DNA of 15,910 nt from JAYEMH01 sp034717985 [NCBI: Candidatus Ratteibacteria bacterium]. Lineage in GTDB: Bacteria > CAZDME01 > JAYEMH01. The translations under genes and the position numbers were made by a program. Numbering within the stretch: position 1 is the first letter of the stretch; every line of letters starts with the position of its first letter. Shown here one piece after another: positions 2 to 9,556 of the stretch. The stretch is from the NCBI GenBank assembly GCA_034717985.1, contig JAYEMH010000016.1, positions 1 through 15,910 of the forward strand, in the 5' to 3' direction. The notes beneath the pieces are model-generated. The model was not told the DNA's origin, searched no databases, and saw nothing but the letters and a program-made list of their open reading frames with translations.

Positions 2-277
2 GAATCAATAGAGGCATTTAAAAGAGGCAACCGCCCTGACCTGACAAAAAAAGAAGAGGAAGAGTTAGCTGTCCTCACTAAATATCTGCCGGAAGAACTC
101 CCTCAAGAAGAAATTCTTAAATTGGTCATGAAAGCAATTGAAGAAAGCGGCGCTCAAAGCAGAAAGGAGATGGGGAAAGTAATGAAAATTCTTCTGGCAG
201 AGGCCAAAGGGCAAATAGACGGGAAAGAAGCCAGTCTTTTGGTTTTGAAAGAGTTAGAAAAAAAAGAAACCAAATGA
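2..277 (+). CDS. YqeY/GatB C-terminal-like protein, 3' part
   Basis: The gene enters from the left edge; 91 codons remain before a TGA at 275-277, roughly the last 60 percent of a YqeY family protein (usually near 148 residues). Visible family marks are the charged start ESIEAFKRGNRPDL, the YLPEELP turn, and the C-terminal helices with the MGKVMK and AKGQIDGKEA segments, which match the helical tail domain shared with GatB of the Asp/Glu-tRNA amidotransferase. In GatB that domain contacts tRNA; what free-standing YqeY does is not well established. Its stop overlaps the next gene's start as ATGA, so the two are likely co-transcribed and translationally coupled. The family assignment is fairly secure; the cellular role is not. 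Confidence 0.85.
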   Translation, partial: ESIEAFKRGNRPDLTKKEEEELAVLTKYLPEELPQEEILKLVMKAIEESGAQSRKEMGKVMKILLAEAKGQIDGKEASLLVLKELEKKETK

Positions 278-1650
278 AAAAAACAAAACAAAATTTTCAA
301 GTAAAATTGGCCTTTTCTCTCCTGGACAACGGCATCGGCATAAAGTTTCGGAACAGATCTTTTTCTCTTTCTTATCCTGAAAAAATCTGGAGAGCTTATC
401 CGAAAAATGAAAAAGATTTCTTGTTTGACAACCTGGTTTATCTTTTAACCATTACCTTCCCTCTCGTTTCAGAATTCAAAAAGATCCGCTATAATACCGC
501 ATATCCTCTTTTCAAACCTTATTTCCAGCAGATGGTCATCCGCGATATTCCCTCCTCTACCGAAGATTATCCTGTTTCAACCGCAAAAACAGTGAAGAGA
601 TTTATGAATTTAGAGGTTAATTTTAAAGATTACCAAATAAAGAATCCGGTTTATCGAACCAGGCCGGTGAAAAAACGCCTCATCGTTCCCTTATCCTTCG
701 GGAAAGACAGCCTTTTAACCTTAGCTGTCGCCCGGGAAATCGGGTTTGAACCCGTTGCGGTTTATATAAACGATACCATTTCGGGCTTGGAAAACAGGTG
801 GAAACTTGAATTGATTAAAAAACTATCGCGGGATTTTAAAATAGAAACCATGGTGATTACTAACCAGATTGAAAATTTAAACGATTTTGAATATTGGGGT
901 AAAAACGAATCATCTTTAGGTTATGCCCATATGATTGCCGGATTTTGCTTCTTAAGCCTGCCCCTGGCTTATTTCTTCAAGGCCGGCTATATTGCCCTGG
1001 GGAACCAGCAGGATATGAGTTTTCCCTTCTGGAATAAGGAAGGGTATCGCGCCTTTCCTTCTTTTGACCAGAGTCTTGAAGGGACGAAACAGCTTGACGG
1101 CATTATCGGTCTGGCGACTCAAAACAAGGTCAGGCTGATAAGTTTAATTGAACCGTTGACCAATCTGGCGATTACAAAAATTTTAAATCAACGTTACCCG
1201 GATTTAGCCAAACTTCAGATTTGTTGTGATGCCCTTAACACCCTTGATAACCGCCAGAGGTGGTGTTTGAATTGTTCCAAGTGCGCCCGTCTGTTTATAT
1301 TTATGAAAGCCTGGGGAATCAATACGAAAAAATCAGGTTTTACCAGGGAGCTATTGGGGAAGAGTTCAGAAAAGCTTTACCGGTTGTTTTCCGGCCGGTT
1401 AGCTGATAACTACGAAAAAAGCGAGGAAGCCCGGGACGAACAACTGCTGGCTTTTTATTTAGCTTATAAAAAAGGCGCCCGGGGATACCTGATGGATAAA
1501 TTCAAGAAAAACTTTTTAAATGAAACCATGAGGCGGGAAAAATCTCTAAGGAAAAATTTTTTGGAACTTCATTCGATGGAAACCATTCCGGAAAATCTCA
1601 AAAACAAAGTCGGGAAAATTTATCATCAGGAACTAAAAGAAAGCTTTTAA
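274..1650 (+). CDS. PP-loop ATPase superfamily protein, QueC/MurL-like, unassigned
   Basis: 458 residues. I do not recognise an exact function. Residues 141-146 read SFGKDS within LIVPLSFGKDSLL, a variant of the SGGKDS PP-loop that binds ATP for adenylation (N-type ATP pyrophosphatases). After a Rossmann-like stretch (150-300), C317/C318 and C331-x2-C334-x2-C337 resemble the zinc-binding cysteines of QueC. An N-terminal domain of about 130 residues before the PP-loop and the whole length recall MurL, the ATP-dependent epimerase of UDP-MurNAc-L-Ala-L-Glu, which I recall as having the same order: N-domain, PP-loop core, CxxC tail. Alternatives are a base- or tRNA-modifying enzyme, or an amide-forming enzyme. 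There is no signal peptide or membrane span, so it is probably cytoplasmic. No clear Shine-Dalgarno is visible, and translation probably depends on the ATGA overlap with the YqeY-like gene. Its stop meets the stop of the convergent pilin-like gene. Confidence 0.75.
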   Translation: MKKTKQNFQVKLAFSLLDNGIGIKFRNRSFSLSYPEKIWRAYPKNEKDFLFDNLVYLLTITFPLVSEFKKIRYNTAYPLFKPYFQQMVIRDIPSSTEDYPVSTAKTVKRFMNLEVNFKDYQIKNPVYRTRPVKKRLIVPLSFGKDSLLTLAVAREIGFEPVAVYINDTISGLENRWKLELIKKLSRDFKIETMVITNQIENLNDFEYWGKNESSLGYAHMIAGFCFLSLPLAYFFKAGYIALGNQQDMSFPFWNKEGYRAFPSFDQSLEGTKQLDGIIGLATQNKVRLISLIEPLTNLAITKILNQRYPDLAKLQICCDALNTLDNRQRWCLNCSKCARLFIFMKAWGINTKKSGFTRELLGKSSEKLYRLFSGRLADNYEKSEEARDEQLLAFYLAYKKGARGYLMDKFKKNFLNETMRREKSLRKNFLELHSMETIPENLKNKVGKIYHQELKESF

Positions 1651-2849
1651 CCGCCCCAGTAGATAATCTCCATACTTGTTTCCCCCGCCGGTAATCCCGG
1701 AGGATTGGGTTTTACATAATCCATGTTGGTCTGGGCAGACAGCCTGACTTGTCCCCTTCCGTAGATACTGCCGGTTATGGTGGTGGGGCCATAAGTTCCA
1801 AAGAGAGATTCGATAAAAACCTCATCGCCGCCATATACCATCCCTTCAATACTGGTCGGATCCCAGATTTCAATATCCGAATTTTTGCTCATAAAAGCCG
1901 GCAGATTCTCATATTGATGCTGGGTAATTTGTCCATGCGCCCATTTATTTACAATAATTTTTCCGGTCGCGACAATACATCCGGTCATTTCCCAGGTGCC
2001 GGACAGGCGGGCTTCTCCCTGGACATAGACAACATGATTGTCCGTTCCGGCACAGGGATCCGACGTAAACCACTGAATATAAGGCCAGCCCGGCGTGTAA
2101 ACTTTATTATCCTGCGCCGCCAGATTATAATAATACTGGAAGAAATTATCATCAAAAGGAGGAAGCTCTACATAGGCCGCACTGGAGATAACGTTTCCGG
2201 ATACCGCGCTGCCGTGATCGGTATTAACATATACTTCACCGCAAGCGCTGGCATCTCCATATACCGTTCCGGTTGTCCAATCGGTACCTACTTGGACGGC
2301 CGGGTCTGTCCAGTAGCCCCAGCCTAACCATTCAACAATCCATTTCCACTCTCTAATTTTGGTGCTGTTGGAGTGAATCTTGCTGGGATTCTCTGCCGAA
2401 GATATTATCGTTCCGCCGGCAACTTTCATACTGCCTCCACCCAGGGCAAGAAAATCAAAAACCTCCGGCCCGCTATAACCGACCTGAACCTGAATGGTCT
2501 TAACGACCTCTTTAACCGTTCCGGTTGAGATTATTAATTTCATATTTGGATCGCTCGGATGAGTAGTCACCGTAATATTATATTCTCCTCTCCCCAACTC
2601 TTTAGGGAAACCGCTGGGAGTGTAAGAAAAATCTTCACTAAGTTCCTTTAAGGCTTCTTCAATACCCGCTTCAGCCAGGTAATCTGCCTGGGTAGAATAG
2701 TTCATTTTTCTCATGGTATAGACATCTTGAAAAACCATGGCCGCCATAGACATACAGGCAAAAATTACTAAACTTAATACAACCAGGGTGGTTAAAAAAG
2801 CTATTCCCTGCCGGCTTAATTTTTTAAATTTGAACTTTCTTGCTATCAT
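1647..2849 (-). CDS. PilX/GspK-like minor pilin with large C-terminal domain
   Basis: 400 residues. The N-terminus has a basic leader ending in RQG followed by a hydrophobic helix (IAFLTTLVVLSLVIFA, about residues 15-35), which is a class III prepilin signal cut after Gly. Position +5 of the mature protein is Thr, not the usual Glu, as in GspK-type tip pseudopilins and many PilX-like proteins. The helix continues to TQADYLAEAGIEEAL, a segment typical of PilX N-terminal domains. The rest (about 130-400) is rich in G, V, T and Y, with short beta repeats such as GEVYVN and GSIYGRGQVRL, suggesting a beta-helix or beta-sandwich outside the membrane. It is last in the three-gene pilin operon, 16 nt after the 713-residue protein, with no obvious Shine-Dalgarno. 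It probably caps or primes a pilus or pseudopilus. Confidence 0.75.
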   Translation of the reverse strand: MIARKFKFKKLSRQGIAFLTTLVVLSLVIFACMSMAAMVFQDVYTMRKMNYSTQADYLAEAGIEEALKELSEDFSYTPSGFPKELGRGEYNITVTTHPSDPNMKLIISTGTVKEVVKTIQVQVGYSGPEVFDFLALGGGSMKVAGGTIISSAENPSKIHSNSTKIREWKWIVEWLGWGYWTDPAVQVGTDWTTGTVYGDASACGEVYVNTDHGSAVSGNVISSAAYVELPPFDDNFFQYYYNLAAQDNKVYTPGWPYIQWFTSDPCAGTDNHVVYVQGEARLSGTWEMTGCIVATGKIIVNKWAHGQITQHQYENLPAFMSKNSDIEIWDPTSIEGMVYGGDEVFIESLFGTYGPTTITGSIYGRGQVRLSAQTNMDYVKPNPPGLPAGETSMEIIYWGG

Positions 2850-2865: not shown

Positions 2866-5007
2866 TCATCTGTCTGTATTTCTTGGTTCAATCTCGGTGC
2901 TAATTGAGCGGGTAACCGGGCCAACCCCAAATACGTCTTTAGTAAGTTCTAACGTTAACCCCAAACCTTTGGTTAGACTGTTTCCGTCAACTTCCACCGA
3001 GAATCTGCCATATTCCGGCCGGGAAGTAATGAATCCGTTTAAAGAAACAACGGTAGTTCCTCCCGGAGTAGATTCACCCGGCCACTTAATATTTACCTTT
3101 TTCAAAACACAGGATTTTGTGTAATCATACATACTTAATGTCGGCTGGGAATCAAAGTCAACCTGGAATTGAACATAGCGTCCACCAGCTATACTGCTTA
3201 TACCGGCGCTTCCCGTGGCGGCGGATTGAGTATCGATGGCCAGTTCATCACTCCAGTCATTATCGATTAGAAGGGCATCCTTGCTATCATTGCTTCTCAC
3301 TCTGATTATTACATTTGCCCCTAAACCGCCGCTGGCATAATCGCCGTAATTATTCTTAGCCATAGTCCAGGAAAGGGTGCTGTAAACCGGGTTATCAAGC
3401 TGGGTGTCATAAATCGGTGAAATCAAGGTGCCCGAAGAATAGTAACTCACTTCAATAGATTCAAGGGCATAAATAGTATCACTTTCTAAGGCCGAATCCG
3501 GCCAGTCCGCAACTTCCGAATAATCAGTGTCACTTCCAATATAATAAGAATGGGGCGCACCGCCCGGCCCCTGCCAGGAAGACATCCCCAGGGAATTGCT
3601 CCCACTAACAAAGAAACTTATCAGATAGTCTTCATCTTTGTTGAAATTATTTATATTCAGCATATTAATCCAGTCAGACCAGAGGTAACTTCCCCGGGGA
3701 ATGGTAACCGAGTTGTTTCCGGAAAAGGTTATTATTTTCTTCGTGCTTTCTTCTCCGTCTTGCCCGTCGGAACGTTCAAATAAAGTGGCCGACTCTATCG
3801 GTAAATCGTAAGTCGCGCTGCAATTTTTAAATTTGAACCTTACCGCACTGCCGCCGGTATCCGTTATCTGATAAGATATCACATTTCTGTAGTTCCGGCC
3901 TGTCCCGGGACCGGTAATATTTACCGCTTGTTCCGGAGTCGTCTCGCCTGCCTGTTCTAAAACATTCCAGGTTTCACCATAACCGGAAAGCCTGACAATG
4001 TAATCCTTGATTGCGGTAGTACCGCCATCACCGTCGGTATCGTTGTAATCTATCAGGGTTTTTGACGGTGAACAACGATGAAAATTAGTTTCAATCCATT
4101 CATCATAATAAAACTTCAGACTCAGGTAGTCTGTCTCATCGGCGGCTTGATATTCCAGGTGACGATTTCCGCTCCAGCTGCCATAACTGACCATATCTTC
4201 GTTTGTTTTACTCTTGCCGGAATCATTATGGACAACCGCCTCTTCTGCTTCCCGGCTGCATCCACAGGGAGAAAGACGGAAAGAATCAATACCCAGCTTA
4301 TATCCTGTTTGAGATGTTCCTTCTACCGCAAAAGTAACATAATGTTCACCGGCGGTAAGAGTAACGCTGCCGAAAGATATCTCGGCGCTTCTGGCGGTGC
4401 TTTCGTTGTAACCGTCAAACTCCCGGGCGCTGGGTTGAATTATTAAAACAACCGGCTCCGCGGATGACGTAGCCGAGCAGGTAAACAAAAATCTTGTTGA
4501 AGCATTGCCGGTATTGGGAGTGGTTTCTATGGCTTCACCATTGGTAACCACCTCATTTATCTGTATTTGGCGATTTTCTTTTGACAAATCAATACGCGGG
4601 TCAAATAAGGTCCGTCTCAATTGCGTCTCTCCCCCCAGAGTCTGGTAAACATGATAAATAACCGTCTGGTCCCAAACAACATTCCCGCCCGCATCAACTT
4701 CAATAAAACCATCACCATCGTTATCTACGGCCGCGGGAAAACTTATTGCTTCATAAGTCAAGGCATCTCCCGGATAAAAAAACATCTTATTGCCGTCCGA
4801 AGCAGCAATTTCTTTTTTGAATCTCTCCATAAACATCTCAAGCTCACCGATTAATCTGGAATTTATTTGTTCGCTAAGCCAGGCTTTTTCTACCGATTGC
4901 CAGACTATAACAACGGCAGCCAGAAGAACCACACCGATAACAAAAGCAATTAGAAATTCAATTATTGAAATGCCCCTCTTTCGGTGATTCTTTTTCATTC
5001 TATCCAT
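2866..5007 (-). CDS. giant PilW/GspJ-like minor pilin with adhesin-like modules
   Basis: 713 residues, several times the usual size of minor pilins (about 200-350). The leader MDRMKKNHRKRG is followed by ISIIEFLIAF, so cleavage after Gly12 leaves Glu at +5, then a transmembrane helix to about residue 37. A Ca-loop-like DNDGDGFIE lies at 95-103 and NDTDGDG at 322-328. Residues about 170-245 (VTLTAGEHYVTFAVEG, then KLGIDSFRLSP) resemble the end of a CBM6/35-type jelly roll. Residues about 385-495 (VRFKFKN, VTIPRGSYLWSD, YLISFFVSG) resemble the beta-sandwich found beside SGNH esterases, but no esterase follows. Residues about 525-645 (SPIYDT, WSDELA, GRYVQFQVDF) form another sandwich typical of surface proteins. 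These domain calls are by eye. An alternative start is ATG at 4998. It begins 6 nt after the PilV-like gene. Likely role: the tip subunit of a type IV-like fibre, with ligand binding as inference. Confidence 0.75.
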   Translation of the reverse strand: MDRMKKNHRKRGISIIEFLIAFVIGVVLLAAVVIVWQSVEKAWLSEQINSRLIGELEMFMERFKKEIAASDGNKMFFYPGDALTYEAISFPAAVDNDGDGFIEVDAGGNVVWDQTVIYHVYQTLGGETQLRRTLFDPRIDLSKENRQIQINEVVTNGEAIETTPNTGNASTRFLFTCSATSSAEPVVLIIQPSAREFDGYNESTARSAEISFGSVTLTAGEHYVTFAVEGTSQTGYKLGIDSFRLSPCGCSREAEEAVVHNDSGKSKTNEDMVSYGSWSGNRHLEYQAADETDYLSLKFYYDEWIETNFHRCSPSKTLIDYNDTDGDGGTTAIKDYIVRLSGYGETWNVLEQAGETTPEQAVNITGPGTGRNYRNVISYQITDTGGSAVRFKFKNCSATYDLPIESATLFERSDGQDGEESTKKIITFSGNNSVTIPRGSYLWSDWINMLNINNFNKDEDYLISFFVSGSNSLGMSSWQGPGGAPHSYYIGSDTDYSEVADWPDSALESDTIYALESIEVSYYSSGTLISPIYDTQLDNPVYSTLSWTMAKNNYGDYASGGLGANVIIRVRSNDSKDALLIDNDWSDELAIDTQSAATGSAGISSIAGGRYVQFQVDFDSQPTLSMYDYTKSCVLKKVNIKWPGESTPGGTTVVSLNGFITSRPEYGRFSVEVDGNSLTKGLGLTLELTKDVFGVGPVTRSISTEIEPRNTDR

Positions 5008-5013
5008 CTTTCA

Positions 5014-5412
5014 CTATAAATATGAAGATAATAAAGTTACCAGCTCAAATACGACTGGATGGTTTAATTCTTCTTTTTTACATTCCACACTTACCGTTAC
5101 CTTAGTCAACCCGGAGGCATATTCAACCTGAGTGGTTCGCTCAAAGTCTCCACCAGCATTGCCTAAATAGTCAATTAATTCAATTTGCGTCTCAGGTAAA
5201 TCAGCCAGAGCCATATAGCCTTTAGTTTTTCTCAGTTCTCGAATCAGCTCCACTCTATTTTTAGCCAGGTTCGCAGCTACATAGGTGTAATAGACGCAAT
5301 GACTCGTTTCGGTGCTTTGATAGAGCAAAGCGGTAATGCCGCCGATACAAATAAGCAGCAAGATAATTGATGCGATAACTTCTATTAGCGTCATACCGTT
5401 CTTATTGCGCAT
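5014..5412 (-). CDS. PilV/GspI-like small minor pilin
   Basis: With the start used here (ATG at 5410-5412) the protein has 132 residues: leader MRNKNG, then MTLIEVIASIILLL, a clean type III prepilin signal with cleavage after Gly6 and Glu at +5. The frame stays open to an ATG at 5457, but I prefer 5412 because an AGGGGT ribosome-binding site lies 5 nt upstream, the six-residue leader is typical, and the predicted promoter -10 (5459-5464) would put the transcript start close to 5457. The remainder is a short alpha/beta globular domain of about 100 residues. First gene of a three-gene set whose order matches the GspI-J-K / PilV-W-X minor pilin series, so it is likely part of the initiating tip complex in the inner membrane. 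Confidence 0.8.
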   Translation of the reverse strand: MRNKNGMTLIEVIASIILLLICIGGITALLYQSTETSHCVYYTYVAANLAKNRVELIRELRKTKGYMALADLPETQIELIDYLGNAGGDFERTTQVEYASGLTKVTVSVECKKEELNHPVVFELVTLLSSYL

Positions 5413-5458
5413 CAGATACCCCTGAATAATGAGAGAGTCGGATATATCATTATTCATT

Positions 5459-5589: not shown

Positions 5590-5664
5590 TGGCGTCCCCA
5601 ATGGGAGTCGAACCCATGTCGTCACCTTGAAAGAGTGATGTCCTAACCACTAGACGATGGGGAC
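5590..5664 (-). tRNA. tRNA-Glu (anticodon TTC)
   Basis: Complete cloverleaf of 75 nt including an encoded CCA (5590-5592). The acceptor stem GTCCCCA (5658-5664) pairs with TGGGGAC, the discriminator is G, the D-arm contains AGTGGTTAGGAC, the anticodon loop is CTTTCAA with stem TCACT/GGTGA, and the T-arm contains GGGTTCGACTCCC. It lies 4 nt downstream of tRNA-Lys on the same strand and must be cut from the same precursor. Confidence 0.97.
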
Positions 5665-5668
5665 GCAA

Positions 5669-5744
5669 TGGTGAGCCGCGAAGGACTCGAACCTTCCACA
5701 CCCGCCTTAAAAGGGCGGTGCTCTACCGGATGAGCTAGCGGCCC
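5669..5744 (-). tRNA. tRNA-Lys (anticodon TTT)
   Basis: Complete 76-nt cloverleaf with encoded CCA (5669-5671) and discriminator A. The acceptor stem GGGCCGC pairs with GCGGCTC with one G-U pair, the D-loop includes GGTAGAGC, the anticodon loop is CTTTTAA flanked by a CCGCC/GGCGG stem, and the T-arm contains AAGGTTCGAGTCCTT. It is transcribed first, before tRNA-Glu, about 50 nt downstream of the predicted start site of its own promoter. Confidence 0.97.
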
Positions 5745-5842: not shown

Positions 5843-7399
<1,557 letters not shown>

Positions 7400-7403
<4 letters not shown>

Positions 7404-8379: not shown

Positions 8380-9513
8380 TCAATCAACAATTTTTACCGC
8401 CGTGCCCGTGGTCACCAATCTGTATACTTCTTCCACATTCTTATTTAACATTCGCACACAACCGTCCGTAGCCTGCTTGCCGATAGATTCCGGCTGGGTG
8501 GTGCCATGAATGCCGTATCCGGCTTCAGAAAGTCCAAGCCAGCGCGTTCCGAGAATATTGTCAGGATGACCGCTGGGAATTTTTCGCCCGTAGCGATACC
8601 ACACAGGATTTTTCAATCTGTCGGTAATTTTAAAATCTCCTACTGGAGTAGAGTTAAATTTTCCCGTCGCGACCGAATAAATTTTTATTATTTCATCGTT
8701 ATATTTCAAAACCAATATGTTTTTTGCTTTACTGACGTAAATATTGAAATGAGAAGGAGTAATTTTAAGACGCTGGCCGATAGAAAGATAATTTGATTTT
8801 AATTGATTGGATTCTTCAAGTAAATCAACAGTGGTGTTAAACCGCCGGGCGATACTGTCCAGGGTATCACCGGATCCAACTTTATAGTTAAAACTGCCCA
8901 CACTGGGGTAAGAAGAATATATCATCTTTACGTTCAGATCCCCTAAATGTTTCCGGGCGCTGGAATAAAAATCATCCTGGGGAAATTCATTAATCACTCT
9001 TTCATAAAAACTTTTCGCCTCCGCTAATTCTCCCTTTATCGCGTAAATCCCACCCAGCCCCAACCAGGCTTCTTCAACCGATGCAGAGTCTTTGAACTCA
9101 GAAGCAACCTTTTCATAAAGTTCCTGCGCTTCCAAAAGCGCTCCTTTTTCCGTTTTTATTTGCGCCAGCATTATCAAACTCGGCGCCACCCAGGTGGACA
9201 TGGGAAATTCTTCAATGATTTTAGTCAAAAATGAGGCGGCTTCATCGATCCGGTCAAGTTTCTCAAGTGAAAAGGCATAATAAAAAATTGAACCAACCGA
9301 ATTTTTACTTTCCGGATAATTAGTGAATATTTCCTCAAAAATACCAGTTGCTTCCTTCCATTTTTTTTCCTCGATTAAATTCCTACCGAAATAAAACTTC
9401 TGGGCAATCCGCTTTTCAATACGGCTCTGAATCAAAAGAAAAAAACCGACCAGCAAGATAACCACGATAAAAGAACCTGCGAAAATACAAATTGCCTTCT
9501 TTTTAAGTTTCAT
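8380..9513 (-). CDS. membrane-anchored TPR-LysM L,D-transpeptidase (YkuD family)
   Basis: 377 residues from the ATG at 9511-9513. A short basic start MKLKKK and a single hydrophobic helix (about 7-29) anchor it in the inner membrane with the rest outside. Residues about 36-195 form TPR-like helical repeats ([25 protein letters not shown]) like those of YbgF/CpoB. A LysM domain at 209-252 ([16 protein letters not shown], then LSIGQRLKI) binds peptidoglycan. The YkuD catalytic domain is 256-377, with His336 in GYGIHGTTQ and Cys352 in ATDGCVRM; Thr replaces the commoner Ser of SHGC. It likely makes 3-3 cross-links or attaches proteins to the wall. AAGGAG lies 11 nt before the chosen start; the open frame continues to TTG at 9537 without a binding site. 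The 43-nt gap before it is the longest in the operon. Confidence 0.92.
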
Positions 9514-9556
9514 TGCCTTTATTTCTCCTTCAATCAATTAAATTGCGGTAAGTTCC

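What the first reader, a model, noticed from the sequence alone, without database searches (positions are those of the whole stretch)
2866..5007. Minor pilin of 713 residues with several adhesin-like modules
A clean prepilin start (cleavage after Gly12, Glu at +5) is fused to about 670 extracellular residues that look like three beta-sandwiches: a CBM6/35-like end (170-245), a sandwich like the one beside SGNH esterases (385-495) and a surface-protein sandwich (525-645). Minor pilins of GspJ/PilW type are usually a third of this size. A possible meaning is a pilus tip that binds a carbohydrate or surface.
Basis: partly seen in the sequence, partly recalled or inferred. Interest (0 to 1): 0.62.

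Follow-up and report, generated by a model that had tools for sequence, protein, structure and literature searches.

The report
Large pilus-tip protein with sugar-binding-like domains
This gene of an uncultured bacterium encodes an oversized minor pilin that carries domains related to those beside sugar-degrading enzymes, so it probably sits at the tip of a hair-like fibre and helps it grip a surface; modular pilins of this sort are already known, so it is an unusual member of a known kind.

Summary
In detail: the minus strand at 2866-5007 encodes a 713-residue prepilin (leader to Gly12, Glu at +5) with coding-like codon usage, between a PilV-like and a PilX/GspK-like gene. Of three proposed sandwiches one is well supported: residues about 366-523 are homologous to the N-terminal CBM-like domain of SGNH esterases (52.8 bits; best of 5000 shuffles 11.7), without the esterase. 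Residues 188-245 match the C-terminal half of a CBM84/CBM35-like module (24 bits; best shuffle 12.5); its N-terminal half is not recognised. Residues 527-645 have weak support only. Best reading: a modular tip pilin presenting CBM-like modules as an adhesin. Tip position and ligand are inferred; the one sugar-contacting arginine that could be checked is lost. Insertion of the modules into the pilin sheet was tested and not shown. Modular pilins are published (over 1,200 proteins, 264 architectures), so this is a new member of a known kind. No relative of the whole protein was found, but genomes of its likely superphylum could not be searched.

The parts
2866..5007 (-). Modular minor prepilin, 713 aa
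   Evidence: ORF; codon usage and start; N_methyl just under cut-off
4972..5007 (-). Prepilin leader, residues 1-12, cleavage expected after Gly12
   Evidence: sequence, Glu at +5
4528..4971 (-). Pilin helix and first part of the pilin head, residues 13-160, with a DNDGDG loop at 95
   Evidence: N_methyl; weak match to NF007848 at residues 5-67, E 0.018, far under cut-off; end of this part set by eye
4273..4446 (-). C-terminal half of a CBM84/CBM35-like module, residues 188-245
   Evidence: 7ehg E 0.0045; 24.1 bits, best of 5000 shuffles 12.5; hhalign 88.4%
4072..4254 (-). Stretch like the N-terminal half of the same module, residues 252-312 (unsupported lead)
   Evidence: by eye; 3.0 bits, reached by 100 of 5000 shuffles; hhalign probability 0.35%
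3439..3912 (-). CBM-like N-terminal domain of SGNH esterases without the esterase, about residues 366-523
   Evidence: the profile match itself is 372-494, envelope 345-528
3073..3426 (-). Possible third beta-sandwich, about residues 527-645
   Evidence: weak: CBM_6 under cut-off, phage-module profile 11.2 bits
2869..3045 (-). C-terminal part, residues 655-713, possibly the last strands of the pilin sheet
   Evidence: by eye and by a low-confidence hairpin 682-692/696-706; not significant against shuffles
5014..5457 (-). PilV-like minor prepilin, 147 aa, 6 bases upstream
   Evidence: N_methyl 25.5 bits, over cut-off; TIGR02523 E 4.6e-7, 30.4 bits, under its cut-off 52.2
1647..2849 (-). PilX/GspK-like minor prepilin, 400 aa, 16 bases downstream
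   Evidence: NF037980 GspK E 1.5e-4 over residues 14-75, 21.4 bits, under its cut-off 130; no PDB hit

Best explanation
A modular minor type IV (pseudo)pilin in the GspJ/PilW position. Shown: it has a prepilin start, sits in a PilV - this gene - PilX/GspK-like cluster, and carries at least two stretches homologous to CBM-like modules of polysaccharide-active enzymes. Inferred: the leader is cut, the N-terminal helix packs into the fibre, and with its two neighbours it forms the tip complex, because about 500 extra residues would fit badly in the shaft. Inferred: the modules work as an adhesin that grips a polysaccharide or another cell's surface, as the lectin module of S. sanguinis PilC does. 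The esterase that normally follows the SGNH-side domain is absent, so binding and not catalysis is expected.
For: Prepilin start and gene order. SGNH-side domain: 52.8 bits against at most 11.7 in 5000 shuffles, hhalign 95.7%, PDB esterase hits. CBM84/35-like half: 24.1 bits against at most 12.5, hhalign 88.4%. In 7TOG-type esterases the domain lines the sugar site (PMC9105624, passages). Precedents: PilB and PilC of S. sanguinis (PMC8179133, PMC9934059, passages) and ComZ (PMC6561018, passages).
Against: No fold was shown. The arginine that holds the glucuronic acid in the 7TOG-type esterase (Arg139) aligns with Ala484, and the authors saw no pocket equivalent to that of a CBM1 in that domain. 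Only half of the first module is recognised, and the third module is weak. No relative with the same architecture was found. No assembly machinery lies in the window and no genome is held.
Confidence: 0.55

Rival explanations
1. A modular tip pilin whose sandwiches bind a protein partner or act as a spacer (as CofB carries the secreted protein CofJ), and not a sugar.
For: The SGNH-side domain lies packed against another domain in its home enzymes, and its sugar-contacting Arg139 is lost here. CofB and TcpB are published tip pilins with extra sandwich domains that serve as adapters (PMC8179133, passages).
Against: At least two modules come from families tied to polysaccharide enzymes.
Confidence: 0.25
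2. A type II secretion pseudopilus subunit that recognises enzymes or their polysaccharide cargo during secretion.
For: The downstream neighbour matches GspK best, and GspI-J-K is a tip complex of type II secretion (PMC8179133, passages).
Against: The upstream neighbour matches PilV of type IV pili best. No secretion gene is in the window, and the genome cannot be searched.
Confidence: 0.1
3. A DNA receptor of a competence pilus, like ComZ.
For: ComZ also has a large module inserted in the pilin sheet and is encoded beside other minor pilins (PMC6561018, passages).
Against: The recognised modules are CBM-like, not beta-solenoids, and acidic residues outnumber basic ones (D+E 10-19%, K+R 6-8% in four segments).
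Confidence: 0.04

Closest known systems
Modular pilins PilB and PilC of Streptococcus sanguinis (PMC8179133, PMC9934059; passages seen)
   Same: A pilin start followed by large adhesive modules not specific to pili; PilC carries a lectin module and binds glycans.
   Different: Their modules are C-terminal vWA and concanavalin-A-like domains; here they are an SGNH-side CBM-like domain and a CBM84/35-like half, possibly inside the pilin sheet. Binding is untested here.
ComZ of Thermus thermophilus (PMC6561018; passages seen)
   Same: Possibly the same topology: a large module between the penultimate and last strands of the pilin sheet; cluster of minor pilins.
   Different: ComZ carries a beta-solenoid and binds DNA. 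The insertion is not shown for this protein.
N-terminal CBM-like domain of SGNH acetyl xylan esterases such as 7TOG (PMC9105624; passages seen)
   Same: Clear sequence homology over residues 372-494.
   Different: No SGNH catalytic domain follows; Arg139 is replaced by Ala484.
CBM84/CBM35-like modules such as MiXBM (7ehg) and the one in a Paenibacillus xanthan lyase (6f2p)
   Same: The last strands match residues 188-245.
   Different: The N-terminal half is missing or displaced. The CBM84 label is inferred: PMC11002231 (passages) puts the known xanthan-binding modules of Microbacterium sp. XT11 and P. nanensis mainly in CBM84; that 7ehg is the former is my reading of its name.
GspI-GspJ-GspK tip complex and the E. 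coli ppdA-ppdB-ygdB-ppdC set
   Same: A run of adjacent minor-pilin genes; here PilV-like, this gene, GspK-like.
   Different: The GspJ/PilW-type member is about four times as long here as PpdB (187 aa).

Membership tests
Type IV pilin-like proteins (class III signal peptide) | Short basic leader ending in Gly, hydrophobic stretch, Glu at +5 | tested here: met
   sequence; N_methyl 19.8 bits against cut-off 21.2 for the full protein, 21.8 bits for a shortened copy
Type IV pilin-like proteins (class III signal peptide) | Long N-terminal helix and pilin head with antiparallel sheet | tested here: inconclusive
   helix 15-68 in a model of mean pLDDT 34.9; the head is not modelled with confidence
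GspJ/PilW minor pilins | Score over the cut-off of a GspJ or PilW family model | tested here: not met
   no Pfam or NCBIfam GspJ/PilW model passes for the full protein or a shortened one; PF16074 could not be validated, its controls stayed silent
Modular pilins (Raynaud et al. [quoted passage not shown]
   prepilin start and SGNH-side domain
Modular pilins (Raynaud et al. 2021) | The extra module has a direct role in a pilus function | not testable with these tools
   needs binding or mutant assays
ComZ-like pilins | Module inserted before the last strand of the pilin sheet | tested here: inconclusive
   residues 651-713 against three pilin C-ends matched or beaten by 267, 455 and 990 of 2000 shuffles; weak hairpin in a poor model
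SGNH-esterase N-terminal CBM-like domain | Sequence homology over most of the domain | tested here: met
   52.8 bits over 372-494, best of 5000 shuffles 11.7; hhalign 95.7%
SGNH-esterase N-terminal CBM-like domain | Arg139, which binds glucuronic acid in the 7TOG-type esterases | tested here: not met
   Ala484 at that place in the phmmer alignment; Arg25 and Asn26 lie outside the aligned part
CBM84/CBM35-like module | Complete module, both halves in order | tested here: not met
   only profile columns 94-146 of 146 match; the front half is not recognised before it
CBM6 (Pfam PF03422) | Score over the gathering cut-off | tested here: not met

The most novel reading that the evidence does not exclude
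The whole cassette of about 490 residues is spliced into the pilin sheet before its last hairpin (as in ComZ), and its first module is a circularly permuted CBM84/35-like jelly roll: the C-half (170-246) comes first and the N-half (EAEE...SGNRHLEY...LSLKF, 252-312) follows. The pilus tip would then hold a sugar-binding head on a two-stranded stalk, with SGNH-side domains reused as lectins.
Probability: 0.15. Interest if true: 0.6.

Novelty: new member of a known kind. Interest (0 to 1): 0.36.

Why it matters
Modular pilins explain how one simple fibre serves many functions, and the 2021 survey notes that many modules escape domain signatures. This protein is such a case: its clearest module had no Pfam hit and was seen only with a profile made for it. 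If the modules bind sugars, it would be a candidate handle by which an uncultured bacterium, perhaps of a lineage suspected of attaching to other cells, holds on to its partner or its food.

Tried and rejected
Structure: the full-length protein (mean pLDDT 34.9) and residues 366-532 (33.3) folded poorly without relatives. I ran no fold search on them, because matches would be meaningless.

Relatives of the protein: none confirmed in genome contigs, in viral contigs with the whole protein or two segments, in phages or, beyond the N-terminal helix, in 146 sampled genomes of one phylum (2 of 146 matched, residues 8-77 at most). The contig scans need short shared peptide stretches, and the phylum was probably the wrong one, so absence is not shown. 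PVC genomes could not be reached: the last genome-contig scan, spent on ThyX, gave 3 loci, titled Melainabacteria, Gastranaerophilales and uncultured bacterium. Scans with the PilX-like neighbour and the small basic protein also found no relative.

Pilin split by the modules: plausible by eye, not significant. Residues 651-713 against the C-ends of three pilins were matched or beaten by 267, 455 and 990 of 2000 shuffles; the PpdB and PilV ends scored better elsewhere in the protein. A shortened pilin matched 7 of 292 genomes at E <= 0.01: four over the N-terminal helix, one at 39-109, and two across the joint (L019, L020; E 0.004 and 0.005), which I took for chance and did not follow. It also gave 1 plasmid record at E 6 and no pilin in the PDB (nor did residues 1-160). 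PF16074 rang in 0 of 292 genomes and in no control, so that search says nothing.

Circular permutation: the second half alone scores 3.0 bits, reached by 100 of 5000 shuffles, and the rotated construct gains nothing; no Pfam or plasmid match for it, and in the PDB only the 7ehg match of the first half. Kept only as part of the novel case.

Third module: segment and consensus searches in plasmids gave nothing; the consensus found 4 phage records, whose profile gives 11.2 bits for the segment, beaten by 1 of 5000 shuffles, and 10.5 bits for the whole protein, reached by 2 of 5000.

Full report
What is there. The minus strand of 2866-5007 holds a 713-codon ORF. In-frame codon usage resembles nine neighbouring genes; the other two frames and the antisense do not. 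GC of the pilin part (0.41) and of the module part (0.46) lies within the 0.40-0.47 range of those nine genes. The protein begins MDRMKKNHRKRG, then ISIIEF: a prepilin start with Glu at +5. Pfam N_methyl gives 19.8 bits, just under its cut-off. Upstream by 6 bases lies a PilV-like prepilin, and downstream by 16 bases a 400-residue prepilin whose best match is GspK; both model matches are under their NCBIfam cut-offs. The order PilV - this gene - PilX/GspK is that of a minor-pilin set. Calling the middle one GspJ/PilW rests on this order; no GspJ/PilW model passes its cut-off.

The organism. A small protein at 7140-7403 passes the cut-off of TIGR04137 (64.3 bits, cut-off 50). From memory, that family marks the PVC superphylum (Chlamydiota, Verrucomicrobiota, Omnitrophota). 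No genome is held for the window, so the phylum is a guess; Omnitrophota would be mine.

The SGNH-side module. The whole protein against plasmids gave 13 records with a match (E 6e-4 to 6, limit 10), and in 13 of 13 the best place lies within query residues 345-530. Three of the 13 have a named feature there, and all three are GDSL/SGNH hydrolases. I fetched 8 of the 13. In 8 of 8 the open frame goes on into a GDS-like catalytic block; I wrote that motif after seeing the sequences. A profile from these 8 N-domains, without the query, scores the pilin at 52.8 bits, over residues 372-494. The best of 5000 shuffles reaches 11.7 and the reversed protein 1.5. hhalign gives 95.7% over 382-471. PDB hits for the segment 354-520 are SGNH esterases 9kr0 and 9kqz (whole-sequence E 5.6e-5) and 7tog (E 5.3e-4). 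Homology is therefore clear. No esterase domain was found in the pilin by Pfam or NCBIfam.

What that module does elsewhere. In the 7TOG-type acetyl xylan esterases the domain is called CBM-like, and two of its loops line the substrate site; Arg25, Asn26 and Arg139 contact the glucuronic acid (PMC9105624, passages). The same authors see no pocket equivalent to that of a CBM1 in the domain. In the pilin, Arg139 aligns with Ala484; the other two lie outside the alignment. The domain is thus a reason to suspect sugar binding, not proof, and the same ligand is unlikely.

The first module. Residues 188-245 match the end of 7ehg, MiXBM (E 0.0045; E 0.03 when the whole protein is the query). A four-sequence profile (7ehg, 6f2p and two domains from Haladaptatus plasmids) gives 24.1 bits for segment 161-250 (best of 5000 shuffles 12.5) and 24.5 for the whole protein (best 10.2). 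Only profile columns 94-146 are matched. hhalign gives 88.4% in the whole protein. Of the three family members scanned, one has a CBM_35 match, under its cut-off, so the family label is loose. The missing front half should contain a pattern like EAE...SGG..L.F; such a stretch (EAEEAVV at 253, SGNRHLEY at 279) lies after the C-half. It scores 3.0 bits, reached by 100 of 5000 shuffles, and the rotated construct scores no better than the native order (24.4 against 24.5 bits; hhalign score 47.9 in both). The permutation is a lead only.

The third module. Pfam CBM_6 matches 584-644 at E 5.5e-4, under its cut-off, and E 0.015 when the segment is scanned alone. A profile of five domains from four phage records gives 11.2 bits for segment 526-655 (1 of 5000 shuffles higher) and 10.5 for the whole protein (2 of 5000 as high), in register on Trp585 and Arg610-Tyr611. 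I regard a sandwich as likely but not shown.

Where the pilin domain ends. The last residues (LGLTLELTKDVFGVGPVTRSISTEIEPRN) look to me like the final hairpin of PilW-type pilins, and the low-confidence full-length model makes a hairpin of 682-692 and 696-706. So an insertion into the sheet, as published for ComZ (between the penultimate and last strands; PMC6561018, passages) and GspK, is my preferred topology but unproven; a C-terminal fusion is not excluded.

Structure prediction.

Mechanism. By analogy with PilB and PilC (passages) and ComZ, a pilin with about 500 extra residues is hard to place in the fibre shaft, so a tip position beside the PilV-like and GspK-like neighbours is the natural reading. 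The modules would be the part that touches the target. Relatedness of two modules to domains of polysaccharide enzymes favours a sugar ligand; loss of the Arg and the lack of a clear pocket argue for caution. If the host belongs to Omnitrophota, type 4a pili are common there and have been proposed to attach to host cells (PMC10066038, passages).

Novelty. Modular pilins number over 1,200 in 264 architectures in the 2021 survey, some with carbohydrate-binding domains (PMC8179133, passages). Searches for pilin + SGNH + adhesin (6 papers) and minor pilin + carbohydrate-binding module (7 papers) listed none whose title or start of abstract describes this combination. I saw only those listings and not the survey's dataset, so the combination may be in it. 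It is best filed as a new member of a known kind.

Noticed in passing
window 1647-2849 (-): A 400-residue PilX/GspK-like prepilin whose body, rich in Gly and short repeats such as VYVQGEARLSG...GCIVATGKIIV, looks to me like a beta-helix, as in ComZ; no PDB or Pfam hit.
   Followed up: partly
window 7140-7403 (-): Small basic protein TIGR04137, over its cut-off; recalled as a marker of the PVC superphylum.
   Followed up: partly
window 274-1650 (+): A 458-residue protein with an almost full-length but weak match to MurL (NF041275, E 4.2e-9, 35.4 bits, cut-off 700), facing the pilin cluster.
   Followed up: no
window 8380-9537 (-): One protein that matches a YbgF-like TPR region and, further on, LysM-bearing proteins and the L,D-transpeptidase LdtE, all under cut-off.
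   Followed up: no
window 5590-5744 (-): A tRNA-Glu and tRNA-Lys pair between purA and the pilin cluster.
   Followed up: no
L023, L024 (Haladaptatus plasmids): Proteins annotated as hypothetical and as heparinase II/III family carry a CBM84/35-like domain.
   Followed up: partly
L026-L029 (phage records): Phage proteins, one annotated as minor tail protein, carry domains resembling the third module.
   Followed up: partly
window 4690-4725 (-): DNDGDGFIEVDA at residues 95-106 resembles a calcium-binding loop; E. coli PpdB has DANSNGIWD in its head. The likeness is by eye.
   Followed up: no
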